A DNA stretch of 64,000 nucleotides from Isoetes taiwanensis (Eukaryota; Streptophyta; Lycopodiopsida; Isoetales; Isoetaceae): NCBI GenBank assembly GCA_021234155.1, contig JAJEKV010000032.1:14214283-14278282 (forward strand), given 5' to 3'. Below, in pieces: positions 6,439-29,865 of this stretch. A program made the position numbers and the translations under genes. The notes under the pieces were generated by a model. The model was not told the DNA's origin. It saw only the letters and a program-made list of their open reading frames with translations, and did no database searches. How positions within the stretch are numbered: position 1 is the first letter of the stretch; every line of letters starts with the position of its first letter.

Positions 6439-7532
6439 CATATTTTGAAATTAAAAACCCTATCAAATTATCATAGACCTTAATTACATCACCTAAAAAG
6501 GCATTCATCTTAGGTTCAAATTCTACTTTTCATTGTGTTACAAGCTTTCAATGATTATTCAATCCAACAAAAGGCGTGACAAAGAAAAACACGGATATGG
6601 GTACTATTTGTGCTCTTTTGTGAGATTTTCGAAAATTGCATTAGTTACATATGACCAAATGTATAAGGATGATAAAAGATAGCAAAAGACTGGCCTCATG
6701 TGAACTGGATATTTTTAGGCAGCCTTTGTGATGTCATATTATAGAGCTAATACATCAGTACACATGCAATGATAATTCATAAAAAAAGTAAGCTATAGCT
6801 TTAATGCATTTAAGAACACTTCGAATATTGCAGCCTAAAATCTATAATGGAAGGCTAAATCAAAGCGTTAAGGCATACTTCCAAATCTTCAACCAGTTCT
6901 AAAGTCATAGTCATGGTCTAAAATCGCATAGCCACATCCACTAGGCTTTCAACTGTTTTACATCTTTGCCAAGCTAAGCTCCATATATTACTCATGAAAG
7001 TTTTTTTCCCATCCCTAGCACCTTCTAAGTAGAGTAAGATATGGTCTGGTTGGTGGTGTTGTATTTTTGTGGGCAATGCACCTAATGCAGCAGTTTTAGT
7101 AGCCATGGAGCTCAACAGCCAACAATGTCCTTGTTTGATTGCTTTGGAATGTTTGTCCTTTAGTAAATAGTTACTGTGGTACTCAGCAATCAATGGAATA
7201 TCAATAGAAGCTCCAATATCTATCCCTGTAATTTGATGTTTGCAAAGCTTTTCAAATGGGCAACAATCTAACATTGAATCCATATGGTCCCAAGAGGTGG
7301 ACAATATGTTACCATAGAGGTCCAAAGAGGTGGATAACCCATCTTACCGGCGATTTCAAGAATAGTTAAACTCTTGATCCCGGAGGCTTTGTATTAAGAT
7401 ATTATGTAATATAAATATAATTTCTTTTGCACTATAAATGTTTTGTTGATGTATTATGTTCCTCCACTATACCAACAAACACATATAATGCAATAGAACA
7501 AATAAAGCTAATCGTAAGGCCATGATCTACTT
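6439..7532. other. Unassigned AT-rich DNA between LINE A and Gypsy
   Basis: A 135-codon minus-strand ORF at 6918-7325 is open but matches nothing I recognise. No LTR or primer-binding site precedes the Gypsy gag, so that element is probably 5'-truncated. Confidence 0.4.
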
Positions 7533-9194
7533 GTGTATGCAGCTAGAGGCCCAGGCTCAGGAGAACGACAACGACGAGACCGTAGGGAGGAACAGACCCC
7601 GCCTAGACCACCCCTGGCAAGGAGCCTGTATGAAGCATTCGGCCTAATGTCTCCGGAGGAAGAAATGTCGCAGATGAGAACGGACCTCAGCAAGAGAAGG
7701 AGGTCCCCCAGCACGGAATCCTCCGATACAAGCTCGGATTCCGACTCCAACTCCGAGGAAGAGGAAGAGCAGGTGCAGGACCGTAGGGACGAAAGGCAAA
7801 GAGACGAAAGGCCAAGGGACTCAAAAGCCTCAGATTACCAGAAGAAGGTGGATTCAGCATTGGGAAACGTATGGAAGGCCAGGAAGCTTGAGCAATTCTC
7901 AGGCGAGAACAGGTCAGGCATAGAGGCAGAAGCTTGGCTCGATGAGATGAGTGAGTATGGTAACGCCTATGGTATGAAGGACAAAGACAAAGGCAGGGTG
8001 GCAACAGCCAACCTGAAGGGAGCAGCACGCATTTGGTGGAAGGGGTATGCCAAGGCCCACGGCTTAAGCATGGATGGTTGCAGGTTCAGAAAGTTTGCTA
8101 AAGCCTTCAAGCGCCATTACGTCCCAAGGGAACACAAGTCCAACATGATGCAGCAGTTCTACAGGTTGCAGCAAGGAAACAAATCAGTCCAGAAATATAC
8201 AGAGGAATTCATGAGGCTAAGGCTTTATGTGCCAAAGTTGAGCGAGAAGCATGCAGTGGAGAGCTATATTGAAGGATTGAATGAGGAGATACACAAGCTT
8301 GTAAGGGCAATAAACCCCAAGACAGTATCAGAAGCAGAATCCAAGGCAATAAGCTTGCAAGGAACGGGGCCTCAGAACAACAGGCAGAGGCAACAGTATT
8401 ACCAGGATAAAGGCAAGGCAACAGGGAGTTATAGCCCTAGAGCAGTCAGCCCAGGTCCAGCTAAAGCCCCATATAGTGGCAACCATGGGAAGCAGCAGGA
8501 GAAGAAGCAGGTGTCCTTCAAGGACAAGCAGGAAGGGTCTAACTACTCCAAAGCAGTGCGGTCCTTTTTACAACCAATGCCCAAGGAGAAGAGGCAGGAG
8601 TGCATAGAAAAGCAGCTTTGCTTCAGGTGCTTCCAGCCAGGCCACAGGACAGCGAACTGCCCCTTCGTCATGAGCGCAGCGCTAGCGGAGTTGGGTGGAT
8701 GGGACACTCCGTCTGACGACGACCGCGAGGCAGCCCGCGACTATATTCAGGGTGAGTGTCATATTTTTGCCGCCATAGATAAAGAACAAGCAGAGAATCA
8801 ATATAAGGTAATTTCCACAGTAGGGAAGGCCAAGGCCAAGTCTTTCATAGTCCTGATAGACTCGGGAAGTAGCCATAACTTTGCATCCCCCAGAATGGTT
8901 GAAATGTTGAAGTTGAAACCATTGAAGTCGAAGCCGAGGCCCGTCGTCTTAGCAAGTGGAGCAGTAAGGCAGACGGCAGGCAAGAGAATTAATTTCGACA
9001 TTGACTTGCCAGGAATTAACATCTAGATGGGGGCAGAGGTAATGGGCATCGGCAAGTATGACTTGATAATAGGAATGGAGTATCTTGGACCGGCAGGGGC
9101 CATCATTGATTGTGGAAAGCGGAAGGTGACCCTCACAACGCCCGACGGCAAGATCATTGAGATCACAGGTAAAGAAGTTGTTCCCATCATGTAG
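7533..9194 (+). pseudogene. Ty3/Gypsy gag and aspartic protease
   Basis: This encodes a Gag-like polyprotein. An acidic/arginine-rich N terminus (first ATG in frame at 7647) is followed by a retrotransposon Gag domain around residues 110-275, with RIWWKGYAKAHG and QFYRLQQGNKSVQKYTEEF. A zinc knuckle CFRCFQPGHRTANC (CX2CX4HX4C) lies near 8620-8662. The protease active-site block VLIDSGSSHNF is near 8850-8883. TAG at 9024-9026 interrupts the frame; it then continues with a protease-end motif GKYDLIIGMEYL and meets another TAG at 9192-9194. Both stops are in the same frame as the downstream RT, so a single ancestral gag-pol ORF is likely. Confidence 0.85.
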
Positions 9195-10430
9195 TGTATG
9201 TCTTCTAAGCAGCTGCTCAGGTGCATCAAGAGCGAGCAGGTAGCATATATCTTCAAGCTTGAGATCGAAGAGCCCGAAGCAGAAGAAGGCAAGGAAAATA
9301 AGGTGCTCAGCAAGTTGCCCAAGCAAATAGCTAAGTTGATCACGGAGTTCCACGATCTCTTCCCGGATGAGATCGAGCACCTCCCTCCTTACAGGGGAGT
9401 CGAGTGTGAGATAGCACTCGAACCAGGAACGAAGCCGACAAGCAAGGCTCCATACAGAATGACGACGCAAGAGCTGACAGAGCTAAAGAAGCAAGTGCAG
9501 GAGTTGCTCGACCTAGGCTTCATTAGACCTAGCGTCTCACCATTTGGGGCACCCATTTTTTTTGTCAAGAAGAAGGATGGCAGCTTGAGGATGTGCATAG
9601 ATTATAGGCAGTTGAATAAGCACACCATCAAGAACAAGTATGCGCTCCCCAGATCGGACGACTTGATGGATCAGCTCCAAGGGGCAAAAGTCTTCTCCAA
9701 AATTGACTTAAGGTCAGGCTATCATCAGATCCGAATAAAGGAGGAAGACATCCATAAAACCGTCTTCAGAACGCGGTATGGACATTATGAGTTCACGGTA
9801 ATGCCCTTCGGCTTATCAAACGCCCCAGCTACATTCATGAGGCTCATGAACGACATCTTTAGGGAGTTCTTGGACACCTTTGTAATAGTATTCTTTGATG
9901 ACATTTTGGTGTATAGCAGACTTCTTGAAGAACACGTACAACACCTAAGGAGGGTGCTCGAGAAGTTGAGAAGGCACCAGTTGTACGCCAAGTTGTCGAA
10001 GTGCCACTTCGCAACGGAGAAGGTGGAATACCTGGGGCATGTGATCTCAGCAGAAGGAATTTCGACGGATCCCACCAAGATTGAAGCAGTGATTCAGTGG
10101 CCGGCACCGAAGAATGTCCATGAGGTCAGAAGTTTTCTTGGCCTAGCAGGGTACTACAGGAAGTTTGTGAAGAACTTCGCAAAGATAGCAGCCCCGCTAA
10201 CGGACTTGACGAGGGCGGAAAAGGTGAAAGATTGGGCAGATCATTGGCACAAGAAAGCCCAAGCAGGGTTTGAATTGTTGAAGGAAGCTTTAACAACCAC
10301 CCCCGTCTTAACCCTGCCAGACCCAGAGAAAGACAAGTTGGTGGCGACAGATGCAAGTAAGATAGCCACAGGTGCAGTGCTCATGCAGGAAGAGCGTGTG
10401 GTGGCGTATGATTCCAGGAAGATGAACGAC
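9195..10430 (+). pseudogene. Ty3/Gypsy reverse transcriptase and start of RNase H, truncated
   Basis: This continues the gag-pol frame. RT motifs include the [20 protein letters not shown] block, [53 protein letters not shown] and the catalytic FFDDILVYS, where families usually have F-I/V-DD. A thumb/connection region and the first RNase H strand ([15 protein letters not shown], then [11 protein letters not shown]) follow. The sequence stops at exactly 10430, where an LTR beginning TGTGAC starts. Integrase is absent. The last few codons of the apparent ORF, to 10448, are LTR sequence. Confidence 0.9.
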
Positions 10431-11993
10431 TGTGACATTCCAGCATAACATATGGTATGAATACGTATATTATACTGACACGTCACTAGTACATGTCGAC
10501 TCAGACGACATGTACACGGCGACCGTAAAGGGTAGTACCCTAGGGTACGACCTTGTGAACCATTATATTGCACATGTTAAGGCCACATGTGAATATAATA
10601 TCTTTTGCCATGTGGCAATAGCCCATTGACCAAAAGGGCCCAGCCCTAAAATTCGTGGGGATAAAGGGGCATAAACCCTAAAAGGGAAACCCTTTCGGGT
10701 TCCAGCCCCTATAGGTCGGATTGGAGCAGCATTGGACGCCATTTCGCCTGAAGAGTAGCAGAGGAATCAGAATTCTTAGGTTGCAGCTCGATCCAAAACC
10801 AGCAGTCTCGAAATCCAGCAGCATGGACGCTTTCAGAGGAGTGGGAGCCAGCCAAGAAGCGGGTTAGTGGTTAATCCGATAGTTAGATCCGAGTTTTCAG
10901 CCCTCATTCCATAGGATTAGTATTCATTCTTAGCTATAGGCTTACCCCCTATGACCCTAAGAATGATAAACACTAACAAAGGAACCTAACCATGTATGAT
11001 TAGGTAGATTAGAATAGATGTATTCTATTATTTCAGTTCCGTTGTGTTGATGTTTTGACATTCTATGCGCCACTCTTGTGTATTGGGAAGGGGGGTAGAG
11101 ACCCAGAGCCCAAGTAGATGGATGATCCTAGTTTTAGCCCATTAATTCCTAATTAATGCGGCCTGTGCATAAGAGCCCGCCTGGTGGGTGGGCGGAGCTA
11201 GACCGCTAACAAGGAAGGGCTTGTCGATGATCACGGTTGATCCCTCCGGCGCGTGAAGCGGCACGCGGGGAACATTGTGGGCTAGGCCTAATACCCTGGC
11301 ACTGCGTGAGGGCAGGGTATGGGCTCGACACCTCTTGGGTGATGCGTCATCTTCTAGGGGTTCAAGTCGTATACGAGCAGTGGCTCTCTAGCTCGCCTGT
11401 GATTGGCATGAACCTTCTGGAGGGGAGTGATCTCCCCCTGCCTCATCGGGCGCTGGGGAGATGCAACCCAGTAATAGCCCCCTTGGCTATGAACCCCCGA
11501 GTTACTTGTGGGGCTCCAATACTTTTTCAGCCTATCTCGCAAAGTATGCAATGGAGGGGCGGATGGAGTGGACTACCCAACGGCCATGTTCCTATGCCCC
11601 CAAATCCATTTGCCATGAATTGCATGCATTGTTATCCAGAGACCCAAGCCGTCAGTCTTTCCCCATGAGTCTGAGCCTGGGTAGGATCTCCCCATGTTAT
11701 GTTGATGTTACTGATGTGTTGTTGCAGCTCTGTGATATGGTGGACCACCCTTCAAGGTGGGTATGTTATTGTTGTTGTCATGTGCTCATGTTTGCTTACA
11801 CTTCCGCAGCTAGGACGATCTCGAGGGAGACGGGATGAATGACACGTCCATTCTTCCCCGTCGGGCTCTTGGCCACCATCAAGGGCCCGATGTTAGGTGG
11901 GGCGGCCTCATGTCGTGGCGATATCTTGGTTTGAGGGATGATCTCCGGTTTTGTATCTGATCGGGGCATCGTGATATGATGGGGGGCGTCACA
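10431..11993 (+). repeat. Left LTR (1563 bp)
   Basis: Starts TGTGACATTCCAGC and ends GGGGGGCGTCACA. It shares with the right LTR the block TATTGGGAAGGGGGGTAGAG, the GGGCTCGACACC segment and the GGGGAGATGCAACCCAG segment. It lacks the SINE present in the right copy. Confidence 0.8.
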
Positions 11994-12012
11994 ATGGTAT
12001 CGAGCTCGATCT
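11994..12012 (+). other. Probable primer-binding site
   Basis: TGGTATC begins two bases after the LTR end, matching the start of the initiator-Met tRNA complement. The match after TGGTATC is disrupted (CGAGCTC rather than AGAGC). Confidence 0.5.
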
Positions 12013-12248
12013 TGGCGCACTGGGATCGAGCAGCGACCGTAATCCTATAGGAACTAACTAATCTAGACATTCAGTCTTGGAGATAAAAGCCCAAGCACGA
12101 ACCTCGAGTAGTGGGAAAATTTTTTCTTTCCCAGGGTAGAGTTAGTAAGTATCTAGAATTAGGATAATTAGAGAACATAATTAAGATGAAATAGACAGGA
12201 GAAAAGTTTTCTAGGAAAGCCTAATAAATTTTAGTCACTTTTTAGCCG

Positions 12249-12320
12249 ACACCTCCAAGGGTGCGCCAGGAGCATGTTAGGTCCATATCTAATTGGTCTC
12301 TCGCGCACTCTTAGAGGGGT
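12249..12320 (+). repeat. Stem-loop repeat 1 of 5
   Basis: A 72-bp unit with outer arms CCTCCAAGGGTGCGC and GCGCACTCTTAGAGG. The inner arms (TTAGGTC and its complement) are degraded in this copy. Confidence 0.8.
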
Positions 12321-12462
12321 CACCCCATATGAGCCCTAGAACTTGGCCTTAGGAGCCCCAAATGGTAAAATAAAAGATGAAATCCCATTTAAAAAGCTCG
12401 AATTAGCTAAATCTGTATGTTAAAACACAGAAAAACATTAAGTAAAAGTCATTTTGAAGCAA

Positions 12463-12534
12463 CACCTCTAAGGGTGCGCCAGGGCATAGTTAGGTCATGA
12501 CCTAATACCCTTCTCGCGCACGCTTAGAGGGGTC
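12463..12534 (+). repeat. Stem-loop repeat 2 of 5
   Basis: Outer arms CCTCTAAGGGTGCGC / GCGCACGCTTAGAGG and inner arms TTAGGTC / GACCTAA. Confidence 0.85.
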
Positions 12535-12675
12535 CCCTAAAAGTGACCTCGGAATTTGCTCGAAACTTTCTCAAAGTGTAAAAGTAATGATAGAATCTTG
12601 CTTAGAATGCTTAAATTAGTGGGAAACGCATGTTAATTTGTTTAAATTGGATAAGTTTAAAGCAAAAAGAGGTCA

Positions 12676-12751
12676 ACACCTCTAAGGATGCAATGAGGGG
12701 CATAGTTAGGTCCGGACCTAACACGCCTCCTCACAAGATGCTTAGAAGGGT
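12676..12751 (+). repeat. Stem-loop repeat 3 of 5 (diverged)
   Basis: Starts ACACCTCTAAGGATG, has an intact inner stem GTTAGGTCC/GGACCTAAC, and ends CTTAGAAGGGT. The outer GCGC stretch is lost. Confidence 0.75.
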
Positions 12752-12839
12752 TCGAGGAAAAAATAGTTGAAGAAGACCCAGCTTCGATTCGGGAGATGGA
12801 GGATTTCACCAACAAACCAAGAAAATAAGCACCTAGGCC

Positions 12840-12867: not shown

Positions 12868-13012
12868 AGTGGACTTAGACCTGATTTTTTAGGGTTTCCC
12901 ACGTTGTCCCATGAGCTTGTCCCAAAGAGGGCGCATCTTCCTCCCCGATCCAAATCGAACTCTGTCAAACAATGGCTAGGACCTAAGCAAACCGCTCCTA
13001 AGGTAAGTAACG

Positions 13013-13553
13013 ATGATAAGCCCGGCGCCCAAGCCCCCGCCACGAAAGCGTAAAACTCAAAGATGCCGAAAAGAAACTCAAGGCCGACATGGAGAGGAGA
13101 CCTAGATACTACCGAAATCTAGAGAAGAGGCGGAAGAAAGAAGAGAAGACCAAGAGGAAAGAAGAGAAGGCAAAGAGGAAAGAGGAAAAAGCAAAGAGGA
13201 GGAGAGGGCAAGGAAGAAAGCACAGGAAGCAGCCGAGGAGGCCAAGAAGACCAATGGCGAACAGGAACTAAGAGCGTGGAAGAACACCACAGAAAGGCAA
13301 AAGGGTGATGACGCACGAGCCCCCCGCCAGAAGAAGAGGAGGAGCTCTACGACATCGCCATCTGGGGTGAATCCAACCGGAAGGCTTACCAACCTCCATC
13401 GCCGCCGAAGATTCGAGGGACGCAGAACTTCTTGGAAGAAGTACTTGTAGGAACAGGAGAATCCTCGCAGAAGAACAAGAACAGTTATCCTGAGACAGAT
13501 GAACCCCAAGAGAAGGGCCAAACCCCAGCCCAAGACTCCGGGCAGACCCCGTG
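13013..13553 (+). pseudogene. Basic/coiled-coil then acidic ORF, unidentified (frameshifted)
   Basis: No family is recognised. From ATG 13013 the product starts with a proline/basic segment ending PPPRKRK, which resembles a nuclear localisation signal. After a frame change comes a long lysine/glutamate-rich, probably helical or coiled-coil stretch (about 13060-13300). A second frame change gives an acidic EEEEL stretch and a proline/glutamine-rich tail, ending at TGA 13551-13553. It lies directly upstream of the histone-fold ORF and downstream of the promoter-like box at 12840. It may once have been the N-terminal part of the same protein, or a separate Gag-like gene. Confidence 0.45.
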
Positions 13554-13656
13554 ATTGAACTACTCCCCGCCAATGCCTCCACGCTGCGAATGGCAAGAAG
13601 CGAGGAAGCTAGATGCGCATAAAGCACCGCAAAGAAGGCTAACAAAATGGCCGTGA

Positions 13657-13872
13657 GAATCATACACTTTAGGGCCCGAGAGGAGGTACCAGAAAGAGTT
13701 AGCAGACTATACCGTATATAAGAGGATGCACACCGAGTACAGTGCCTATTACGAGGCACACAAGGTAAAATATATTGAAGGAGGGCGGCCAACACATGAG
13801 ACACTCCAACCTGAAACCCCCACCGTGAGCTTCCGACCCCCACGTAAGCTTTCCAAGAGAAGATCCCAAAAT
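13657..13872 (+). pseudogene. N-terminal extension of the histone-like protein, in another frame
   Basis: Frame 1 is open from 13657, reading YQKELADYTVYKRMHTEY near 13690-13740 and ending in a basic RPPRKLSKRRSQ stretch near 13835-13870. The histone fold follows directly in frame 2. One frameshift near 13850-13880 would join them, giving a basic tail in front of the fold. This is inference; a separate short ORF is also possible. Confidence 0.4.
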
Positions 13873-14158
13873 TCAAGATTTGGGAAAAGTTTTGCGAGAA
13901 ATCCGACACTTCCAACGGAGTTACGGATTTTTTATCCCCAGAGCTGCATTCCAGAGATTTGTCTGGGAGATTTTGTGGGATTTCGACCCCGACAAGCGAG
14001 TAACCAATGACATGTTACTCGCTTTACAAGAAGCGGCAGAAATGGAGGCCGTGCAACACTTCGAAGATTCACTGGCATGCACGGTCCATGCAAAAAGAGT
14101 CACGCTTCAGCCAAAGGACATGAGACTGGCCAAATACATCAAGAGGACAGATAAATAG
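13829..14158 (+). CDS. Divergent histone H3 fold protein encoded inside the LTR element
   Basis: The frame is open from 13829, after TGA 13826-13828, to TAG 14156-14158: 109 codons with no ATG near the start. It follows histone H3 colinearly. LREIRHFQRS (alpha-N helix; H3 has LREIRRYQKS) leads to IPRAAFQRFVWEI (alpha 1). DFDPDKRVTND is loop 1 with the same length as canonical H3, not the longer CenH3 loop. LALQEAAE and the FED motif form alpha 2, and HAKRVTLQPKDMRLAKYI gives loop 2 and alpha 3. The canonical N-terminal tail is missing. AATAAA follows at 14214. Histone H3 normally packages DNA; why a retroelement would carry a version is unknown. It is far too diverged to be a host H3 gene copied recently. 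A frame this open amid decayed neighbours suggests selection or a recent parent. Confidence 0.8.
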   Translation, partial: ASDPHVSFPREDPKIQDLGKVLREIRHFQRSYGFFIPRAAFQRFVWEILWDFDPDKRVTNDMLLALQEAAEMEAVQHFEDSLACTVHAKRVTLQPKDMRLAKYIKRTDK

Positions 14159-14213
14159 AACAGAAGCTACTTTTTGTAACTAACATGCTTATATGTAATG
14201 TATGAAAATTTTG

Positions 14214-14219
14214 AATAAA
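14214..14219 (+). terminator. AATAAA polyadenylation-like signal after the histone-like ORF
   Basis: AATAAA lies 56 bp after the stop codon of the histone-like ORF, before stem-loop repeat 4. Confidence 0.45.
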
Positions 14220-14283
14220 AAGGATACATAGTTGTTTAAACGTGCATTGGAGTAGTTAAGGAGCAAATGTCGAATTTTGGCCA

Positions 14284-14355
14284 ACACCTCTAAGGGTGCG
14301 CCAGGGCACACTTAGGTCCCAACCTAACCCCCTCCTCGCGCACTCTTAGAGGGGT
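14284..14355 (+). repeat. Stem-loop repeat 4 of 5
   Basis: Outer arms CCTCTAAGGGTGCGC / GCGCACTCTTAGAGG pair fully but for one base; the inner stem TTAGGTC is near AACCTAA. It lies just downstream of the histone-like gene. Confidence 0.85.
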
Positions 14356-14496
14356 CCAGCCAACTGGGCCCTTGATCAGCCACTTACCTGCTCCAAACGA
14401 AGTAAGTAAGCAAAGAAACTTGCAGTTGAGAAGAAAATAAGTAGGAATTCACGTCTTTAATCTTGTTCTTGGCACCCATTAGGCAGAGATAGGCCA

Positions 14497-14568
14497 ACAC
14501 CTCCAAGAGTGCGCCAGAGGCCACTTAGGTCCCAACCTAACACCCTTCTCGCGCATGCTTAGAGGGGT
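14497..14568 (+). repeat. Stem-loop repeat 5 of 5
   Basis: Outer arms CCTCCAAGAGTGCGC / GCGCATGCTTAGAGG and inner TTAGGT / ACCTAA. It lies upstream of the second promoter-like box. Confidence 0.85.
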
Positions 14569-14721
14569 CCGACCTTTCAAGGTCCATAACTTGTGCTAGA
14601 CATACCCAAATCAGCCAAAATTTGTTGCATTAGAACCCTGAAAACTCTAGAGAATCCATTTTTTAGCTCTCAATTAACCTAGAAACATTAATATTCACCT
14701 CAAAATGTCAAAAGTTTGAGG

Positions 14722-14760: not shown

Positions 14761-14869
14761 CTCATACACCCCAAGCGACACCTATGAACTTGCTCCTGCT
14801 CCCAAAGCGACTTTCCAGTCTCCTTAAGCGCTTCCAGCTCCGTTCGATATCAACACCACGCTCGTCCTC

Positions 14870-15319
14870 ATGGCCACGTCATCATTCATCAACTAGTACA
14901 GCGCCTCTCCCCATGTTGTTCAGGTAGATGTTGGCTTAGTATTCCAAGTTTCCGGAGAGAATTAGACTTTGCAACTCTGAATTCAAACCCATTATACAAA
15001 CAAGTTCTGCAAGAATTCCAAGAGAAAGTAGCTCCCAGCTTGCAAGAAATACCCCCATGCATAGGGTACTTTGTACCAAAGACAGTCTTGCAAACAGCCC
15101 TAAGTCATAAACCCAACATTGCTAAATTGCTGCAGAATAGGACCAAGTGCCTACCCAATTACATGACCCTGAGCGGTAATAAAAAGAGATTCTTCTCTTA
15201 CAACGCAGCCTTATCACTATACTTATTCTATATGGCCCCAAACCATGGTAGGAGAGCCGTCAATCCAGCCACTAGAGATTACACCCTTGGACTCGGCAGC
15301 AGACGAGCAACTACTGCTT
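14870..15319 (+). pseudogene. Unidentified ORF of the LTR element (MATSSFIN start)
   Basis: From ATG 14870 the first codons meet TAG, but the frame reads on as a sensible sequence to a second break near 14960. The main frame then continues to TGA at 15319 with EFQEKVAPSLQEIPPCIGYF and LLQNRTKCLPNYM. No known domain is recognised; length and position after the leader would suit a Gag-like or structural protein. It overlaps the next ORF in another frame. Confidence 0.4.
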
Positions 15320-15875
15320 GAGTATGAGCAGTCCAAAGCGGAATCATCCACAGCAAGGGAGGGCTCAGAGGATGAAGGCGAAGAAGAAATGGAGGTGGAC
15401 CCAGAGGAAGAACGCCGAGAAGCAGAACAAGATGTCGGCCATTTCGAAGCTGACAGGAGCACACCTAGAATCACACAAGCAATCGGGCTGGGAATAACAA
15501 GCCTAACGTCGATCATAGTCGAAGGGCAGGAATATTTGATTCTAAACGATATAAAAAAACCTTCCCGAATGCAGGGACAGAGGCTATCGTATCGACGAAC
15601 TTCTCCACCTCCTGCGGCAGCAGCCAGACTTGGATGACTTCATCGACCAAGAAATTGATGAATTTCCTGTGGAGGTAAGGGAAACAGCCACTTGCACAGG
15701 ACACACAATCTCCGATATCGAAGCCTACAGCACCATCAGAGGCATGATGAATGAAGAGCAGCCACCGACAGAAGAAGAGTTTGCGACACTCCAAGAACGG
15801 ATGGGAATAAGAGGGAAGACAACAAGAGCACTTCAAGCTGATAGGAGGACGAGGAGATATGCCTCCAACAACTAG
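15245..15875 (+). pseudogene. Unidentified acidic ORF of the LTR element
   Basis: From ATG 15245 the frame encodes a strongly acidic region (EGSEDEGEEEMEVDPEEE near 15360-15415) and then EGQEYLILNDIKK. The A-run at 15551-15557 is a likely slip point. After it the other frame continues smoothly from PECRDRGYRIDELLHLLRQQ to a stop at 15873-15875. Joined, it would be about 210 residues. No family is recognised. Acidic segments of this type occur in histone chaperones, but nothing else supports that role. Confidence 0.45.
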
Positions 15876-16214: not shown

Positions 16215-18336
16215 AAGCTGGAGAAGTGTTAGCAACCGACTTCTTCCACGAGCTTCCTAGAGGCAACAGGAGGATCAAAACTGACGGGCACAATCAAAAC
16301 CACCGGAGGATACCTCAAGACAAGAAGACGGCATAGCACTGAGGAACGTGACAACGTCCAAGCCAGGTGATCGAGGGGATCAGCAAGGAAGATTGGAAGC
16401 TCGATGGAGAACCAACTAGGTGAGGCAAGGCGAGGCGAGCCGATGACTTGCACGCGGACTTGCATCAAGGATCGACGATTCAAAGAACAACTGCAGAAGA
16501 GAACAACTCCAGAGGAGTATAGCCAAAGGAATCGCGCACAGCCTCAAGAGACACCTCCAAATAGCTTCAAATATCATGAAGGGGGGAACAATTACAGCCC
16601 GAGAACAGAATCAGGAGGCAGACCGAAATGTCGAAGCATCAACGACCAGCACACCTTTAATTAGAATGAAATGCAGAGCGTGTTGTCCCACAGCCGACAA
16701 ACATCGGAGGGCCCAAGTATATCAACAAGTTACCCCGGAGTACGAGCTGACGTACAAATAAGAGGATATATATCGTCAAAACCATTGCACCGGGAGGCAC
16801 AAACGTGACCTAATAGCTCTAGTAGTAATTGTAATTATGTAAGCTATATGCTTTGCATATATAGTTCCCTTGTTATTCCTTCCCTCCCATAGCGTAACAG
16901 ATCAAACGAAGAGATGTCAGGCAAATTGCAGGGGTGAAGCAATCAACATCTTCAACACTCTTCGGGCAACACGATAACGACAAGAGGACTCGATGTATGA
17001 GACGTCGATGGAGTCGAGGAAACAATATCGGATATAGAGTCGTCCTTTAGCTACCAAGATAAAGAGTTCAAGATGAAAGATCTTTTTCAACGGCGCCACC
17101 TTTAGGCTTTTGAAAAGCGGCATGGAAGATTTCAAGTGACCAACTACACCATCAAAGACCAGCAAGGAGAGGCTTCTAACGAACAAAGTCAACCTCTACA
17201 TCAAGAGGAGCCACCGTCAAGGAGACCGAGGTATCGAGCAACTCGAAAGAACGTTACCTTGCTACTTCAAGCAGGCAACGAGTGGATGAGCTTCTAGCAA
17301 GCTCAAGGATCCAAGGCCATGGGGCCTAATAGGTTAAATGTATGGATGGTAACATCCACATTGGGATTAGAAGGCATTTTTTTTTAGATATTCTCGCCGA
17401 AAGGATTGCCCAATATTGAGCTAAGCGTCAAGTATTGGGAAGGAAACACATAAGAGTAACTAAAATTATACAAGATTGTTAACAGACATTCAACATATTG
17501 AAACCACTTGGTGAGATTGATCACCTCGCTAAGAAGGAATCATTACTAGGATAATTGTTGACCATGTATAAATTTAGTACCTCCAAAGAATAATCCAACC
17601 GAAAGAAGTAATCTAACAAGTCCGGCCAACTTGTTACGATGACATCAATTCGATTGGTAGGAATATTCCAAGAGTTAAATAACTAAGAAAGGGGGAATCT
17701 CTAGAATATAAAAGAATAGTACATGCAAAGTACATCTAAAATAAAAATTATAGTAATCAAATAGTCTTTTGAGACAAAGGGAATTGTCATGATGACAAAA
17801 CCTTGTGGTTTAGAATCGTTCTAAGTAGGTAATCCGCAACTATATTGAAATAAATGATAACATAATATGTGCATCCATCTTAGATGGTTATATATGTTAT
17901 CTAAGGATAGTAAATTAATGCGCTAAGTAAGAAGCATATAACCTCTTAAGGGGAGAGAATAGATATGACGTTGTGTACAACGTCATTGAAGGGGTGCGGG
18001 ACCATTTTCTTTTCGAAGAAAGTGGGAGGGCTCAATCTTATGATTGAACGTACTTGTATCGAATTGACCGACCCGTAGAATAGAGTTCACTCCCGGCAAT
18101 GGCGGGTTTAATAGAGCGTAAGATAGATAAATACCTTAGTGCTCAGGAGGCCTTCGACATGCGAGACTGACGTGATAGCTAACTACACCAAGGAAGTGGA
18201 GCAAAAATATGAGAGCAATGCAACGACCAAGTCATCTCCAAATTACTCCACGTAGGCTCAATGGGCGGATCGCTCTAGCCTTAGGAAAGGTTTGCCCATG
18301 TATAATAAGCTTTAATGTGTCTTATTGACAAGTTAA
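16215..18336. other. Degenerate interior of the LTR element
   Basis: Short open stretches, for example at 16404-16664, match no family. A TATATAG-containing AT stretch lies at 16850-16863. A perfect 22-bp palindrome-like hairpin (ATGACGTTG ... CAACGTCAT) at 17965-17986 is followed by GAAGGGGTGCGGG and resembles the hairpin plus purine tract just before the right LTR. Confidence 0.4.
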
Positions 18337-18768
18337 ATATAGATCCTAATAACCACATAGAATTTGTTGTACATATATGTATCATAGGGAAATAAGTTAA
18401 ATAACAACGGTAATGTGAGGTAGCATGTTAATTAATCCTTCGCAAGGATGCAATTCCTTCCAAGGATAGCTATATAACCTCGGGTCCTTATAAATATAAA
18501 TAGAAAATAGAATTCAGATATACTTAAAGTGCATCTTAGGGATATACTTCCAAGGGTAATGCAGGACCCAAGGAAGAGAATAAGAAGCACATCTAATTCT
18601 TGTGTATGATAATTAAAACCTTGTCTATGTAACAATAGGTCTAAATCAGGGTTATTGTTTAAATAATCGCGATCTAAAAGTTGTTAAATATTGCAAAGCT
18701 AGAGTAAATATAATTGTACGATCGAAAGTAATGTATCCGATACTATGATAATGTTAATTCATAAATAT
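18337..18768 (+). repeat. Direct repeat copy 1 (432 bp) flanking the Rep-like element
   Basis: Nearly colinear with 22516-22951, differing by scattered substitutions and a 3-bp indel (GCAGGACCC versus GCAGCAGGACCC). The Rep-like insert starts at its last base. Confidence 0.9.
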
Positions 18769-19369
18769 GCCTGTGGATTCAAATTCTGTGCAGACTGAGA
18801 CTTTCTGGATGCCAGCTCCTGCGATGCCTAACCTTGCACAGAATTGGGATGCAATAGATGTTTCTGTCACACTGGCCTTGTCTGGTCAGGATGTTCCCTG
18901 TAGCTTCTTTGATGCCCTTCCTTCCTTCTGCGATAGGAGATGCCTTGCTGGTGTAGTTGCCCTGGAGAGGGGGTCTTCTGCTGATCACCTTCATGTGTAG
19001 GCCGTGCTTAGAGCCCGCTACAAGACTCCTAAGGCCCTGAACGAAGCTGTCAAAAGGGATTTCAATTGGCCCTCTAAGCCAGCCGGCGTTATCTTAGTGT
19101 GCAAGGCCCTCAAGAATAACAGGATGCACTGCTTTGAGGGCATGCTGGGATACTGCATGAAAGACGTAAATATGATTGAGCACGCGGTCTTGCCTACCAA
19201 GAATCCCCTTCAGGCACTGCTGTTTCACGGGATCATGTTCGAACACGATGCAGAACCTTTTGTGAATCAATACAGCTATGCCAAAAGCACCACAAGAGAA
19301 GTAATCGAACACGCCTGTGCCTGGCTGTACCAGCTCCTGCACGAGGTAGGAACAGGTTGCAGGACCTAG
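18767..19369 (+). pseudogene. Rep-like HUH endonuclease (one in-frame stop)
   Basis: HUH endonucleases nick DNA and stay bound through a tyrosine to start rolling-circle replication or transposition. Here GADHLHV-type sequence (DHLHV at 18983-18997) gives the His-hydrophobic-His motif. The next codon is TAG (18998-19000), where Rep proteins usually have Gln (HLHVQ). The same frame continues through HCFEGMLGYCMKD, whose YCMKD (19151-19165) fits Rep motif 3 with the nicking tyrosine and a lysine. The spacing of motifs 2 and 3 fits a Rep nuclease domain. After about residue 145 the sequence has no recognised domain; it ends at 19369. The first three codons use the end of the direct repeat for their ATG, so the true N terminus (motif 1) may be missing. 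The single stop suggests recent loss. Confidence 0.65.
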
Positions 19370-20326
19370 CTGACTTCTCATTATGATTTCTCCAGCATGC
19401 GGTTCTAGCACCCCTGTTGGTGCTGGATTCTTGTACTCATCCTCATATATGCCAATATAAACTCTGGACCTAGAGTCCAGGTTATCCAACACTGAGGAGA
19501 CAACAAAATTGTGTTCTGTGCGTGCGAAGCAAACATCCAAAAGATTCAGCAGTCGTGTTCTTGACGACCGTGTCAAAGAACTTGGACAATGTCGACTGGT
19601 CCTACATTGGAGTTAGATTTCGCTTCTCCAGAACAATCAAAGAGGCTGGCAAGCTGGCACAAGAGTGCATTTGATTTGCCCTCTTCTATCAGTGAGCTCA
19701 ACCTCGTAGCGGAACTCTTCAGTGTCATCCCTCTGCATAACTTTATTTCTTATGACCCTTGCCAAGGCTGGAGGTATGTTTCCAAAAATTTCCTCCTTGG
19801 AAATGCCATCGTTGACCCATTTGTTATGCAGTGTCCCTATGGCCTTTAAGCTGTCATCGTCAAAGCCTGGCACAGTGGAGCAAAAGTCTTCGAAGGAGGT
19901 GAACTTCCTTGGGAAGTTTTCCTTGACATACTCCAAAATTTCCTTTTCAAGAACGATAATGTCTTGAGAGCTCTAGCCATCGTCTTGAAGTAGTCACTTG
20001 TGTGATCAGTGGAGACCTTAACGTATACCTTCTCGTCAAGCACCTCCTGGAATAAGACTCTGCAATCCTCATAGTGCATGCCTCTGAGGCACCGCAGATA
20101 AGTCTGACTGAAGTAGTCACTATCTTTGGTCCAGACACATACTATAGGCTGCCGTCTATTGTCCTTGAGCTTGCCAGTTTTCCATTGGTTCCACAGGGAC
20201 TGGAACGGCTGAAAGATATCCTCTGGCATGAAGACCCACCAGTTGAAGTCTTTGGGTTGTTTACCACGCACGGTAACTTCTGCTAGAGCCAGGTACTGCT
20301 GAATGCAAAGGACATTTGTTAGCAAC

Positions 20327-20356
20327 GAAATGCAAACGGCGCCGTAGTGCCATTTC
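20327..20356 (+). repeat. Palindromic GAAATG...CATTTC motif in the Rep-like element
   Basis: GAAATG and GGC are mirrored by GCC and CATTTC around a central GGCGCC. It is one of several related palindromes in this element. Confidence 0.5.
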
Positions 20357-20417
20357 AATGGTAAAACTTAAAACTCATTATGTATAGAACCCAAGAAAAC
20401 ATAAGATCAAGACAACT

Positions 20418-20454
20418 GATATGAACAAATGGCGCCACGGTGCCATTTCATATC
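20418..20454 (+). repeat. Palindromic AAATGGC...GCCATTT motif in the Rep-like element
   Basis: GATATGA/AAATGGC on the left mirrors GCCATTT/CATATC on the right, with a two-base offset. Confidence 0.6.
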
Positions 20455-22265
20455 AAGACACAAATGAAAATAACTAGCAGAATTTCAAAATGACACCATA
20501 GTGCCATGTGATGTAAATATCATACCTTATAAGGTTTCGATCGCATATGCCCGCAGCCGAAGGATCAGGTTTGCCGCAAAGTGTGTACTGGTGCCTCAAT
20601 TGGGTGATCTTGTCAATGAAAGATCTTTTGAAGATGGTCTTCACTGCAATGTCATTCACCTCACAATTGAGTTGCAGACAGTTCCTGCTCGTTCACCTCT
20701 CCCGACAACACCCGGCATGTCCGATACTCGTATATTTTGGCCATCTGCTCCTGGAACTTTGCAGTGCCTAGCTTTCTGCAAACCAACTGCGCTGCCAATA
20801 CCAAGTGATTCCCATTCACTATATAGAAGTGCAACCCCATAAGATCGTCCACTGTTTTCCAAGGAACTAATTTCTTTGTGTTGGGGTGGAAGGGGATCAC
20901 ATCGAATGCAGGTAACGAGGATCACTGAAAGATTCCAGCAGGGTCTTGATGTATTCCATATTTTGGCCCGAAGTCAAATTTGAGGGGCTTGGTATAAACC
21001 TAACACGTTTATTTCTTTGTAAACGAATGCCGAGGAAAGATGATGGTGGTCATAAATTTTATTCAATGTCATTGCCATCTTCTCCTCCTTGACCTTTCCA
21101 CCTTGAGGCTCCCACAAGCACCTCTAACAAGTGCCCAGCTATCCGCATCTTTATTAATTGAGATGGCATGGACCCCTGGACTTGTGGTGCCGAGGTATCC
21201 CCCGCCTTGTCGTGCTTCCACCACCAATACCACCACTGCTAGTGGCCTCCTCACGCTGTGGAGAGGCCACAGGAATTGCAGGACTAGGTTGTGGACTAGG
21301 AGGTCGAGGGCTTTGTCTTCTTTATTTCTTTGGAGTGCCCTCAACATCTGATGTGCCATGCCTATGTTTTCTCTTGGTCTTCCTTTTTCTTCCCGCTCCT
21401 TCCTTGCACTACCTTCCTTCCCCTCCTTTTCCCTTCTTCCTTTCTTCTCCTTCTTGCTTCCCTTCCCCTCCTTATCCTTCCCTTCTTGCTTCCCCTCCCC
21501 TTTCTTCTCCTTCTTGCTTCCCTTTCCATCCCTTTCCTTTTTGCTTCCCTTCCCCTCCTTATCCTTCTTTTCCTTTTGCTGTTTTTCTGTAGTTTTTGCT
21601 TCTGATTTTTTAACCTCTTCATCAGTATTAGAAGAGTCCTTCTCAGTAGCAGGAACCTCCTTGACAACACAAGTCTTCATTTTCTTAGAAACTCGAAGCC
21701 AAGCAGTGTCCACTAAGCGGGGTGGGTTCTGCGAGTTCAAGGCCGTCACAACCAAAGAAGGAGAGTTCTTCGACTCGTTCATTCGATTCCGAAGAATGTT
21801 GTATCCCCTTAAAACCTCGGTAGGACCTTATATATTTGCCTCTTGGAAGCTCTTATAAGAGGGAAGAGCCCATCCATGTCGCTTAGCACAGCCATTGACA
21901 TTGGAAATACTTGCGGACATCATTGTGGGACCATAGAACTGTCAGTCCACGTAGTAAATGTTTATCTTTACGTCGTCCATGTTCTCCACAACTACGCGGA
22001 GCCAGTCCTTGCGCCCGTTATTGAGAGCTATCCTCATGTTAATGATAATGCCCAGCTGGTAAACCCTTTGAACCCGAAGGAGCAGAAGTGCTCATCCTCA
22101 TTATCTCCATGCACCAGGCCCAGGCCCGTTCATTCAGCGGAACAGACCTCTCGGACTAGAATAATGTTTTTGCATGCAACATAGCTGAAAACAAAAGCAT
22201 GCACATCAGGCAAGTAGAACGAATAGTCTCACTGCTCTACAAAACTCAAATGCAGCTCTTCAGAT

Positions 22266-22291
22266 GCAAATGGCGCTGCGGCGCCATTTGC
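22266..22291 (+). repeat. Perfect palindrome in the Rep-like element
   Basis: GCAAATGGCGC and GCGCCATTTGC form an 11-bp perfect stem around TGCG. Confidence 0.8.
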
Positions 22292-22367
22292 CATACATAG
22301 TTAGGCATCACGCATCAGAAAATAGATGGGCATCTGGTCTCGGAAACAACAATCTGCCTCTCACGAC

Positions 22368-22394
22368 GCATATGGCGCCGCAGCAGCCATTTGC
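22368..22394 (+). repeat. Imperfect palindrome in the Rep-like element
   Basis: GCATATGGCGCC ... GGC/AGCCATTTGC repeats the 22266-22291 motif with changes. Confidence 0.55.
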
Positions 22395-22409
22395 ACTGTG
22401 AGGGCCAAC

Positions 22410-22513
22410 ACAAGTCAGTGAACTAGAAGGCAGGCTGCCTCGTGAGCAACAATGTAGTTCACACGATATATTGTTGCTCACGAGGCAGCCTGCCTTCTAG
22501 TTGCCTGACTTGT
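22410..22513 (+). repeat. Terminal hairpin of the Rep-like element
   Basis: A 31-bp perfect stem (22423-22453 with 22470-22500) encloses a 16-nt loop. Outside it, after a 4-nt mismatch, ACAAGTCAG pairs with CTGACTTGT. The structure ends two bases before direct repeat copy 2, so it marks the element's right end. Rolling-circle transposons often end in a hairpin that acts as a termination signal. Confidence 0.9.
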
Positions 22514-22515
22514 AT

Positions 22516-22951
22516 ATATAGATCCTAATAACTGCATAGAAGTTGCCGTATGTATATGTATCATAGGGAAATAAGTTAAATAACAACGATAATGTGAGGT
22601 AGCATGTTAATTAATCCTTCGCAAGGATGCAATTCCTTCCAAGGTTAGCTATATGACCTCGGGGTCCTTATAAATATAAATAGAAAATAGAATTCAGATA
22701 TACTTAAGTGCATCTTAGGGATATACTTCCAAGGGTAATGCAGCAGGACCCAAGGAAGAGAATAAGAAGCACATCTAATTCTTGTGTATGATAATTAAAA
22801 CCTTGTCTATGTAACAATAGGTCTAAATCAGGGTTATTGTTTAAATAATCGCGATCTAAAAGTCGTTAAATATTACAAAGCTTAGAGTAAATATAATTGT
22901 ACTATCGGAAGTAATGTATCCGATACTATGATAATGCTAATTCATAAATAT
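22516..22951 (+). repeat. Direct repeat copy 2 (436 bp) flanking the Rep-like element
   Basis: Partner of 18337-18768. Downstream sequence (TACCTTAGGG) continues the LTR-element interior. Confidence 0.9.
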
Positions 22952-23950: not shown

Positions 23951-24003
23951 AAGGTGGGGAGACCCACGATGCTGCGGACAGCATCATTTCAAGGTGGGGA
24001 GAA
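23951..24003 (+). other. Polypurine tract region with duplicated tract and hairpin
   Basis: AAGGTGGGGAGA occurs at 23951-23962 and again at 23991-24002, directly before the right LTR. Between them GATGCTG-CGGA-CAGCATC forms a hairpin (23968-23985). The second tract is the plus-strand priming site. Confidence 0.7.
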
Positions 24004-25420
24004 TGTGACGTTCCAGCACAGTATATGGTCCTAAGACGTATACTGTACTGCTTCGTCACGCGTACACGCCATTCCGACTGACGTGTACGCCAACGTGTAG
24101 CCGAGCAAGTAGCACCCTAGGGGGCAACTTGCAAGGTGTGTGCATTTAATTATGGGCACATTTGCTCATGTGCAGACTTATCCATGTGTGTGTCAATGTG
24201 TACACATTTATCCATGTGTACACATTTATCCATGTGGATATCCTAGGCCACTTATTTAATATAAGTGGGGCCACATCCAATTATCCCACATGCCTAAAGG
24301 GGATAATGGGAACCCTAGCTCTAACCCTTAGTCTATATAGGCTTTGGAAACCCTAACTTTCCATTTTCGTCCAAAGGCTTCTAGGGCTCTGTTTCGCTTG
24401 CTTCAAGAGCCCATCTCGCATCCCAAACCCTGTCTGAGCAGTTTAGCTCATCAGTTTCCCCTTCTAGCTTCATCTTCTAGCAGTTCAGCAGCATGGCCGA
24501 GTTCAGAGCAGGAGGAGCGAGCCAAGGATCAGGTATTTTGTCAATTCAATAGTCTAAACCGCCTCCCAGACATTGAATAAGTATGTTTAGCCTATTGAAT
24601 TGCCCTTAGTAGCCATCTAGATCTCTAGATACCCAGCCCTAACTAAAGAACCTAACTCTATGATATAGATTAGATCTTGTCCTTTAGTTCTTCTGTGATA
24701 TGAATGCTGTGATGATCTCTGTGAACTCATTGTATTGGGAAGGGGGGTAGAGACCTTAAAGCTTAGTAGTTGATGCTCCTAGCTAGCCCTCTTTAGTGCA
24801 CTGTAAATTCGGCCTGTGTACAAGAGCCACACCTGGTTGTGGGTGAAGGGGCCAGACTGGCTTACAAGGAGGTTCATGTCCTGACTCATGAGAACGATTC
24901 CTCTAGTGTGTAAAGCCTACCGGGGATCCCTGTGGACTAGGTCTAATGGCTTGCCACTGCGTGTGGGCAAGGCATGGGCTCGACACCCGTGGAGTGATGC
25001 ATCACTCTCCATTGGGTTCAAGTCGAATAAGGGCAGTGGCCCTCTAGTCACCTTGAGTCAGCATGTAGATCTCTGGAGGGAGTGATCCCTACCTGCCCCA
25101 TCGGAACTGGGGAGATGCAACCCAGGAATAGCCCCTTTGGCTATGCATCCGGCGGGCTACAGTCAGGTCCCAACACTTTTCAACCTACTCTGCAAAGTGT
25201 GCACAGGAGGGGCGGATGGAGTGGACAACCCTAAGCCATGTTCTTATGCCAGCCAAATCCATTTGCTATGAATTCTGTCTGCAATGACCTCTGGAGACCC
25301 AAGCCGTCAATCACCCCCCTCGAGTCTGAGCCTTGGGTAGGATTTTCCATGTGATGTACTGATCTTTGTCTATGCAGATATGTGATGTGCCATCCTTCGA
25401 GATGGTTATGTGATGTTGAT

Positions 25421-25453
<33 letters not shown>

Positions 25454-25730
25454 TGAAGGCATGGTTGGTGGGACTTGCACCCACCCACGTCTCCCACCCG
25501 ACCACCGCGATGGGCGATGTTGATGTTGTATACTGACATGTATGTTTACGCTTCCGCAGCTAGGTAGGCCCTGAGGGAGACAGGGTAAATGACCCCTTCA
25601 TTCTTCCCACTGGAACTCATCAAGGTTGCAGTGATACGTGGAGGGCCCTGTATCAGTATGGAGCTGGTATGGGGGATGAACTCCTGTTTGTATACGGTGA
25701 GTGCACCGTATATGAGTAAGGGACGTCACA
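24004..25730 (+). repeat. Right LTR (1727 bp, with SINE insertion)
   Basis: Starts TGTGACGTTCCAGC and ends GGGACGTCACA. A CTATATAGG TATA-like site lies near 24331. It carries a SINE at 25424-25515 that the left LTR lacks. Confidence 0.8.
25424..25515 (-). mobile_element. Short tRNA-like SINE with 12-bp target duplication
   Basis: Flanked by GATGTTGATGTT at 25412-25423 and 25516-25527. On the minus strand it contains GGGTGCAAGTCCCACC, like a tRNA B-box, and ends in about 30 A residues (T at 25422-25451). The A-box half seems missing, so it is probably 5'-truncated. Confidence 0.75.
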
Positions 25731-29715: not shown

Positions 29716-29865
29716 ATTGAAATTTTGGGGACATGAACAAACAAAAAACTGGTGATAACGGGACCCCAAAAACCACTTGTGGTTTTAAAAAGGTAAAGGT
29801 CAGCTATGGCGGCCGGCCGGATTGGCACAAAAGAAAGAAAGAGCGTCTACAGACCATAGCTGGCT

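What the first reader, a model, noticed from the sequence alone, without database searches (positions are those of the whole stretch)
13657..14219. A histone H3 fold encoded inside an LTR retroelement
An open frame of 109 codons follows histone H3 from the alpha-N helix to alpha 3 (LREIRHFQRS, AFQRFVWEI, LALQEAAE, HAKRVTLQPKDMRLAKYI). It sits between LTRs, with an AATAAA behind it. Loop 1 has canonical H3 length, so it is not a simple CenH3 copy. The N-terminal tail is replaced. Histone genes in retroelements are, to my knowledge, not a standard cargo. It could help the element act on chromatin, target nucleosomes, or be a frozen captured gene. The match is seen in the sequence; the role is inference.
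Basis: partly seen in the sequence, partly recalled or inferred. Interest (0 to 1): 0.92.

Follow-up and report, generated by a model that had tools for sequence, protein, structure and literature searches.

The report
Retrotransposon carrying its own histone H3
A large group of jumping elements in a quillwort-like plant genome carries its own histone H3 gene, often with the exact first ten residues of real H3, kept working by selection, which suggests that these elements act on chromatin with a histone of their own.

Summary
The 109-codon frame at 13829-14158 is an H3 histone fold (Pfam Histone 2.7e-17; PDB H3.3 7.6e-20; AlphaFold model matches nucleosomal H3). It is the 3' end of a decayed ORF1 of an LTR retrotransposon family. 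Intact relatives in the same genome (394-411 codons) begin with the H3 tail tip, MARTKQTA(R/P)K in 7 of 10 copies, then a long charged arm, then the H3 fold. In 5 of 10 copies ORF1 is followed by ORF2, gag, RT, integrase and chromodomain: these are Ty3/Gypsy chromoviruses. Purifying selection is strong (fold dN/dS 0.02-0.15 in the window's subfamily, pairs with dS>0.25). Exact sites: 168 for this fold type, 457 for a second, more H3-like type in a related element, 1051 for the MARTKQTARK tip, host genes included. Assembly size matches Isoetes taiwanensis. Eight targeted paper searches listed no histone-encoding retroelement; the closest are hAT-captured H3 in fungi. The role (pairing with host H4, presenting a tail mimic) is inference. 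The window copy is broken.

The parts
10431..11993 (+). 5' LTR (TGTGAC...GTCACA), 87% identical over 1588 alignment columns to the LTR of copy C1034
11995..12010 (+). primer-binding site resembling the initiator-tRNA-Met type (TGGTATCGAGC here and in C907; TGGTATCAGAGC in C1033, C1034, C1018)
   Evidence: the tRNA assignment is recalled knowledge
12244..12322 (+). hairpin 1 upstream of ORF1
12457..12535 (+). hairpin 2 upstream of ORF1
12670..12755 (+). hairpin 3 upstream of ORF1 (more degraded)
12972..14158 (+). decayed ORF1: H3 tail tip, charged arm and H3 fold, spread over several frames; unbroken in relatives (386-411 codons)
13829..14158 (+). open frame holding the H3 histone fold
14214..14219 (+). 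AATAAA (polyadenylation-like)
   Evidence: function not tested
14279..14357 (+). hairpin 4, downstream of ORF1
14492..14570 (+). hairpin 5, downstream of ORF1
14849..15854 (+). decayed ORF2 (in relatives up to ~470 codons, acidic stretch, no Pfam family)
18334..22951 (.). separate element nested inside, with ~440-bp direct repeats 95% identical
23991..24003 (+). polypurine tract (AAGGTGGGGAGAA), same as in the four copies inspected
24004..25730 (+). 3' LTR (73% identical to the 5' LTR over 828 bp; 71-74% to the LTR of C1034)
7518..10430 (+). gag-protease-RT fragment of the same chromovirus family (gag part 93%, RT part 92% to copy C1033), cut in RNase H where the 5' LTR begins

Best explanation
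SHOWN: the frame is the 3' part of a decayed ORF1 of a chromovirus (Ty3/Gypsy) family. ORF1 encodes a histone H3 made of the H3 tail tip (MARTKQTA(R/P)K in most copies read), a ~290-residue charged arm, and an H3 fold; purifying selection keeps it and it is held in many copies. INFERRED, most likely role: the protein enters the nucleus and pairs through its conserved fold with host H4, and with itself or host H3 through the kept H3-H3' bundle. Nucleosomes or tetramers at the element's cDNA or target sites then carry an element-made subunit whose free ARTKQTARK tip is handled by host H3K4/H3K9 enzymes and readers, while the long arm may tether the element's own complex to chromatin. This would favour integration or counter silencing.
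For: H3 fold by Pfam, PDB and model. Intact 386-411-codon ORFs starting with the H3 tip or a variant of it. Position between LTR+PBS and gag-pol-chromodomain: the full order in 5 of 10 copies, with Pfam domains in C1033. LTR identity 89-96.5% in C907, C1018, C1034, C1033 and 5-bp target-site duplications in 3 of these 4. Selection: in subfamily A, pairs with dS>0.25 have omega 0.02-0.15 in the fold and 0.07-0.28 before it; in lineage C the fold has dN 0.019 at dS 1.0-1.25 in 3 of 6 pairs, the other 3 having dN 0 at dS 0.015-0.13. Columns 1-10 are the most conserved ten-column window of the 297 before the pre-fold block (A-B identity 0.78 against 0.19 for the rest of that part). The exact tip is spelled in 11 ways in 13 element loci. 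All 7 H3-H3' bundle positions checked (110, 113, 114, 116, 123, 126, 130) and R83 are kept in the six host, A, B and C sequences compared (which positions matter is recalled).
Against: No transcript, protein or binding data were available. The window copy is broken, and only 5 of 28 loci (the window's own among the 28; two of the 5 are also copies C1035 and C1057) have an unbroken ORF1 from a recognised tip; a sixth, L037, has a 391-codon open frame without one. Among very recent copies (C1035, C1057, C908; dS 0.04-0.09) omega is 0.41-0.73 before the fold and 0.10-0.35 in it, so individual copies drift. In 3 of 10 intact copies the tip deviates (MARMEQTARK, MARTKQTVRI, MACTKQTTRI). In A and B several contact positions differ from host H3 (R63 to P or S, K79 to D, F84 to V, L103 to H, K56 to R or Q, 87-90 to DMLL; R49 to Q in C1033, R72 to W in C1085), and PHRYRPGT before alphaN is missing, so nucleosome entry may be poor. 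The integrase chromodomain is of group II type: the aromatic positions Y24 and Y48 appear as I and L (my reading against passages of PMC3350952), so reading of its own methylated tail by the element is not supported. Five of 10 copies keep ORF1 with no RT of the family in the 20 kb fetched.
Confidence: 0.5

Rival explanations
1. Tail mimic or decoy: ORF1 does not need to enter nucleosomes. The ARTKQTARK tip titrates or recruits host H3K4/K9 writers, erasers or readers to escape silencing, and the fold serves only for dimerisation or stability.
For: The tip is the best conserved ten-column window before the pre-fold block. 1051 exact MARTKQTARK sites exist in the genome, control 0; 15 full-length host H3 genes were found. 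Nucleosome-contact positions are altered in A and B. Histone mimicry by viruses is described in papers seen only as a search listing with abstract starts.
Against: The fold is under stronger constraint than the arm, and the second lineage keeps a near-canonical fold without that tip.
Confidence: 0.25
2. Genome-packaging protein: the charged, histone-fold ORF1 condenses the element's RNA or cDNA in particles or the pre-integration complex, perhaps through the conserved hairpins that bracket ORF1.
For: Lys/Arg-rich stretch in the arm. Hairpins at conserved offsets before and after ORF1 in subfamilies A and B, with stem changes that keep pairing.
Against: The element already has a gag with capsid domain and a weak, below-cut-off zinc-knuckle match. 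Packaging alone does not explain the conserved tail tip.
Confidence: 0.12
3. Passenger: a captured H3 gene carried along without benefit to the element.
For: Many copies are broken, the window copy included. Transposon-captured H3 that decayed is known in Pseudocercospora fijiensis (PMC6710886: abstract and passages).
Against: Low dN/dS over long synonymous distances in A, in the one measurable B pair, and in C, retention of the same ORF order in A and B, and probably two separate acquisitions of H3 (one clade for A+B+C: p-AU 0.039).
Confidence: 0.06
4. The A/B fold descends from a centromeric H3 (CENH3) and guides the element to centromeres.
For: Residues such as EIRHFQ, LIP and RVTL recall plant CENH3 (recalled). 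A clade of A+B with two CENH3 is not rejected (p-AU 0.204).
Against: No loop-1 extension. Copies lie on many contigs (centromere positions unknown here). Identity to CENH3 (46.7-50.6%) is no higher than to host H3 (48.9-51.1%).
Confidence: 0.07

Closest known systems
hAT DNA transposons that captured histone H3 in fungi (Pyrenophora tritici-repentis H3L, PMC3538342; Pseudocercospora fijiensis and relatives, PMC6710886)
   Same: A mobile element carries an H3-like gene and multiplies it to tens or hundreds of copies. In P. tritici-repentis copies are nearly identical, beside a full hAT transposase gene, and ESTs of the H3-like gene exist (abstract and passages).
   Different: Those are DNA transposons with inverted repeats. 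In P. fijiensis all extra copies are RIP-inactivated. Here it is an LTR retrotransposon, ORF1 is kept by selection in several lineages, and the H3 has a long arm or an extra N-terminal domain.
Plant chromoviruses (chromodomain Ty3/Gypsy elements), including those of the lycophyte Selaginella (PMC3350952)
   Same: Same gag, RT, RNase H, integrase and C-terminal group II-like chromodomain, LTRs, PBS and PPT.
   Different: Two extra ORFs before gag, the first a histone H3. PMC3350952 returned no hits for 'additional ORF', 'extra ORF' or 'ORF1' (passages only).
Viral histones: single H3 genes in DNA viruses, bracovirus H4, doublets and larger fusions in giant viruses (review PMC9145170)
   Same: A selfish genome encodes an H3 that presumably works with host histones (passages).
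   Different: Those in the passages are DNA viruses; the review gave 0 hits for words beginning 'retro'. Their sequences were not compared here.
CENH3 (centromeric H3)
   Same: H3 fold with a different, longer N-terminal part (recalled for CENH3).
   Different: No loop-1 extension, tail tip of canonical H3, mobile and multicopy.

Membership tests
Ty3/Gypsy chromovirus | gag, protease, RT, RNase H, integrase in Gypsy order | tested here: met
   Pfam on copy C1033; gag, RT, integrase in order in 5 of 10 copies. In the window only a gag-PR-RT fragment of the family lies nearby.
Ty3/Gypsy chromovirus | chromodomain C-terminal to integrase | tested here: met
   PF00385 4.5e-10 at residues 436-485 of 510 in C1033; group II-like residues.
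Ty3/Gypsy chromovirus | TG...CA LTRs, tRNA-Met-type PBS, PPT, 5-bp target-site duplication | tested here: met
   PBS and PPT in the four copies inspected and the window; TSD in C1033, C907, C1018, not in C1034 nor in the window.
Histone H3 | H3 fold with alphaN, alpha1-3 and H3-type loops | tested here: met
Histone H3 | canonical N-terminal tail | tested here: inconclusive
   Only the first ten residues match, and not in every copy; the rest of the tail is replaced by a long charged arm. Lineage C lacks the tip.
Histone H3 | forms nucleosomes with H4 | not testable with these tools
   H3-H3' bundle residues kept, several other contact positions changed; no binding data.
CENH3 | longer loop 1 | tested here: not met
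   No insertion relative to host H3.
CENH3 | phylogenetic grouping with CENH3 | tested here: inconclusive
   p-AU 0.204 with two recalled sequences.
H3-bearing hAT transposon | hAT transposase and terminal inverted repeats | tested here: not met
   LTRs and chromovirus pol instead; no hAT family among Pfam hits of the 37 frames scanned.

The most novel reading that the evidence does not exclude
A whole clade of retrotransposons has made histone H3 a core gene: it acquired H3 at least twice, keeps the H3 tail tip by selection, and builds element-made H3 into or onto host chromatin. The element thus brings its own chromatin identity (a readable H3K4/K9 module) to its DNA or target sites. As far as searched here, it would be the first retroelement known to encode a histone.
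Probability: 0.4. Interest if true: 0.97.

Novelty: new variant of a known kind. Interest (0 to 1): 0.93.

Why it matters
Histones are among the most constrained host genes, and the chromoviruses described in the papers seen here are thought to act on chromatin by reading it (chromodomains). A retrotransposon clade that encodes an H3 with the genuine tail tip would be a new way for a selfish element to take part in chromatin. It makes the question 'can a mobile element write itself into nucleosomes, or fool the H3K9 silencing system, with its own histone?' directly testable. It also means that annotations of this genome could mistake hundreds of element ORFs for histones.

Tried and rejected
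Rejected: a second gene in the 13657-14010 frame (it is ORF1 in another frame); a one-off captured fragment; the nested 18334-22951 element as carrier (it has its own repeats); direct reading of the element's own H3K9me by its chromodomain as a supported claim (group II residues); relatives in IMG/VR (5 stretches matched a pattern, none confirmed; the tool may leave out records of this genome). Led nowhere: ORF2 homologues (none at E<=0.001 among 7993 scored; no Pfam); ORF2 fold (job not finished). Rfam gave nothing at gathering threshold and ARAGORN no tRNA. Full-length ORF1 relatives in 5.77 billion proteins: 603 hits at E<=0.001, 120 listed; the listed ones cover 21-53% of the query.

Not in print, as far as searched: eight paper searches were aimed at this; two more concerned the Isoetes genome. 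They cover open-licence PMC only, and I saw the listed papers (5 to 15 per search), not all that matched. Seen as listings with abstract starts unless stated. Passages seen: PMC3350952, PMC6710886 (also its outline and abstract), PMC3538342, PMC8566536, PMC10541799, PMC13317346 (word 'histone' 0 times), PMC9145170, PMC12477816. None was read whole.

Selection of rows: the 10 long copies were chosen because their open frame was 425 aa or longer, so they say nothing on how many copies are intact. Of the 150 places I read 10 in 20 kb and 28 loci at 2-3.3 kb (8 cut by the tool, the window's own among them; 20 taken from the top of the list, closest relatives first); two of the 28 are the same copies as two of the 10. 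For lineage C I read 4 copies and the downstream flank of one. Of the 1051 tip sites I fetched 3 because of this list; others lie in loci already at hand. The 31 hairpins are a choice from 8 of 11 loci; the window's third hairpin and copies C1057, C908 and C1018 were left out.

Full report
OBSERVATION. The 109-codon frame at 13829-14158 is a histone H3 fold. Pfam Histone scores 2.7e-17, the best PDB match is H3.3 at 7.6e-20, aligned without gaps, and an AlphaFold2 model from a 21-row alignment (mean pLDDT 84.4, pTM 0.59) has the four expected helices and matches nucleosomal H3 chains in Foldseek. Chance can be excluded.

THE WINDOW ELEMENT. A pair of LTRs (10431-11993 and 24004-25730) with TGTGAC...GTCACA ends, a tRNA-Met-like primer-binding site at 11995 and a polypurine tract at 23991-24003 bound the region. 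The 5' LTR is 87% identical to that of copy C1034, the 3' LTR only 71-74%; the two are 73% identical to each other over an 828-bp alignment and have no matching target-site duplication. The pair is therefore probably recombined from two subgroups rather than one old insertion. Inside lie a decayed ORF1 (12972-14158), a decayed ORF2 (14849-15854) and a nested element with its own 440-bp repeats (18334-22951). No RT of this family was found between the window's LTRs; the gag-protease-RT of the same family lies just upstream (7518-10430) and is cut in RNase H. The histone frame is therefore one piece of a broken gene, not a short gene of its own.

THE FAMILY IN THE SAME GENOME. That the window is from this quillwort is inference. 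A search with the window protein gave 150 scored matches, the window itself included (of 7776 first-look candidates), many in open frames of 400-480 codons. The ten intact copies read encode 394-411 residues: 7 of 10 begin MARTKQTAPK or MARTKQTARK, the others MARMEQTARK (C908), MARTKQTVRI (C1085) and MACTKQTTRI (C1080); then comes an arm with a Lys/Arg/Glu-rich part, then the fold. Of 28 loci read at 2-3.3 kb (the window's own among them, and two that are also among the ten), 5 have an unbroken ORF1 from a recognised tip. In 5 of 10 copies fetched as two 10-kb pieces, ORF1 is followed in order by ORF2, gag, RT, integrase and chromodomain; in the other 5 no RT of this family was found in the 20 kb. 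Pfam on C1033 confirms Retrotrans_gag, protease, RVT_1, RNase H, integrase and Chromo. LTR pairs are 96.5% (C1033), 94.5% (C1018), 93.0% (C1034) and 89.2% (C907) identical; 5-bp target-site duplications are seen in C1033, C1018 and C907 and not in C1034.

COUNTS. Exact searches of the genome with degenerate DNA patterns (control patterns 0 each): 168 sites for the motif KRVTNDM of the A/B fold, which two of the three B copies read do not have, 457 for the lineage C motif QTFAILALQ and 1051 for the tip MARTKQTARK. The last includes host H3 genes, of which 15 matched at 96-98% over the full length. In the loci at hand the exact tip is spelled in 11 different ways in 13 element loci, host genes apart. 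Three further tip sites were read: one is subfamily B, one a further type with an A/B-like fold (41 of 52 residues as in B_C1080, 31 of 52 as in host H3), one a decayed further type whose fold was not seen. What most of the 1051 sites belong to is therefore not known.

LINEAGE C. Searching with canonical H3 showed 135 further scored matches at 71-86% identity beyond the host genes (150 scored of 9022 candidates). Four were read: a 409-419-residue ORF with an unnamed N-terminal domain, a linker and a fold 87.8% identical to host H3 (L049), without the tail tip. Downstream of one of them lie RT (85% to subfamily B over 190 residues) and integrase with the chromodomain part. So related chromoviruses carry an H3 of another kind. 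The tree puts A+B on a long branch (100/99) and C as a clade (99/99) in a weakly supported group with host H3 (84/75); one clade for A+B+C is 14.3 log units worse, p-AU 0.039, which favours two acquisitions but not strongly.

SELECTION. Nei-Gojobori on 10 intact ORF1: within subfamily A, pairs with dS>0.25 have omega 0.02-0.15 in the fold and 0.07-0.28 before it; the one B pair that could be measured has 0.09 and 0.25; A-B synonymous sites are mostly saturated; the three youngest copies have 0.10-0.35 in the fold and 0.41-0.73 before it. Lineage C fold: dN 0.019 at dS 1.0-1.25 (3 of 6 pairs; the others dN 0 at dS 0.015-0.13), N-terminal part omega about 0.10-0.16. RT as yardstick: one measurable pair, dN 0.022 at dS 0.405; the other nine pairs are saturated. 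Columns 1-10 are 78% identical between A and B, against 19% for the following part, 55% for the pre-fold block and 70% for the fold, and are the best of the 297 ten-column windows before the pre-fold block; the next separate windows lie in the Lys/Arg/Glu-rich stretch at 0.71.

RESIDUES. Against host H3, the two A and two B sequences compared keep R69, R83, C110, H113, A114, K115, R116, D123, L126 and I130 and positions 92-94, 97, 101 and 104, but change R63, K56, K79, F84, 100, L103 and 87-90 (S-A-V-L to D-M-L-L); R49 is Q in C1033 and R72 is W in C1085. The C sequence keeps these, with 87-90 as F-A-I-L. A and B lack PHRYRPGT before alphaN, C has a form of it. The H3-H3' bundle is intact in all six, so pairing with H4 and tetramer formation are plausible; the functional meaning of these positions is recalled knowledge.

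HAIRPINS. ORF1 is bracketed by hairpins of about 65-85 nt, some 210 nt apart. In the seven A copies BLAST finds three before it and one or two after; in B a palindrome scan shows one or two of the same kind before and two or three after (about -500, -290; +122 to +147, +326 to +358, +532 to +557), with other stems. On 31 chosen hairpins, 87.3% of cells pair (79.6% in shuffles) and 50 cells changed on both sides (23.2 in shuffles); no shuffle of 500 reaches either, and slid controls have at most 6 such cells. Two other measures do not stand out: pairs with a change on both sides 8 (shuffles 7.6; 332 of 500 as high) and further pair types 20 (17.8; 46 of 500). Related rows can beat such shuffles without structure, so the stronger points are the single folds (z -4.1 to -7.0 in five window hairpins) and the stems that differ between A and B yet pair. 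Their role is unknown.

MECHANISM AND RIVALS. The most likely reading is that ORF1 acts on chromatin through an H4-pairing fold and a readable H3 tail tip. Selection, order and fold are shown; nuclear action is inferred. Decoy, packaging, passenger and CENH3 readings are weighed in their sections. The chromodomain of the same element is group II-like, so a self-recognition loop through H3K9me is not supported.

NOVELTY. Transposon-borne H3 is known from fungal hAT DNA transposons (PMC3538342, PMC6710886) and virus-borne H3 from DNA viruses (PMC9145170). No retroelement with a histone gene was listed in the eight targeted paper searches named under Tried and rejected, and no full-length ORF1 relative among the 120 listed of 603 protein hits. 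One 371-residue H3 with the same tip and a long insert (P0128) exists in an unnamed source and could be a parallel.

CHECK. 

Noticed in passing
window 12244-12755 and 14279-14570; similar offsets in subfamilies A and B: Hairpins about 210 nt apart bracketing ORF1, with stems that differ between subfamilies yet pair; function unknown.
   Followed up: partly
L049-L053 (C1034, C974, C907, C1061): Lineage C: related chromovirus whose ORF1 joins an unnamed ~300-residue N-terminal part to a nearly canonical H3 fold; 457 exact sites of its fold motif in the genome.
   Followed up: partly
L057, L059 (C1, C37): Two further ORF1 types begin MARTKQTARK with other arms; most of the 1051 exact tip sites were not read.
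   Followed up: partly
window 14849-15854; L015, L019, L021, L025: ORF2, up to ~470 codons with a strongly acidic stretch, shared by A and B, without Pfam family or protein relatives; could be a partner of the histone.
   Followed up: partly
window 18334-22951: Nested element with 440-bp direct repeats (95%); a frame inside weakly matches Replitron_HUH (E 0.0014, below cut-off).
   Followed up: no
window 29860-31698 and 53094-55085: Plant-type genes: SPARK receptor-like kinase and a PPR protein, supporting a land-plant source.
   Followed up: no
P0128 (371 aa, 6 members) from the protein collection: H3 with MARTKQTARK tip, an insert of over 200 residues and a near-canonical fold in an unnamed organism; may be a parallel case.
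   Followed up: no
P0019, P0021, P0025, P0030, P0033, P0034 (read) among P0019-P0034: Closely similar short H3-like proteins with extra residues in loop 1 on several long contigs; looks like a multicopy H3-like sequence in some genome.
   Followed up: no
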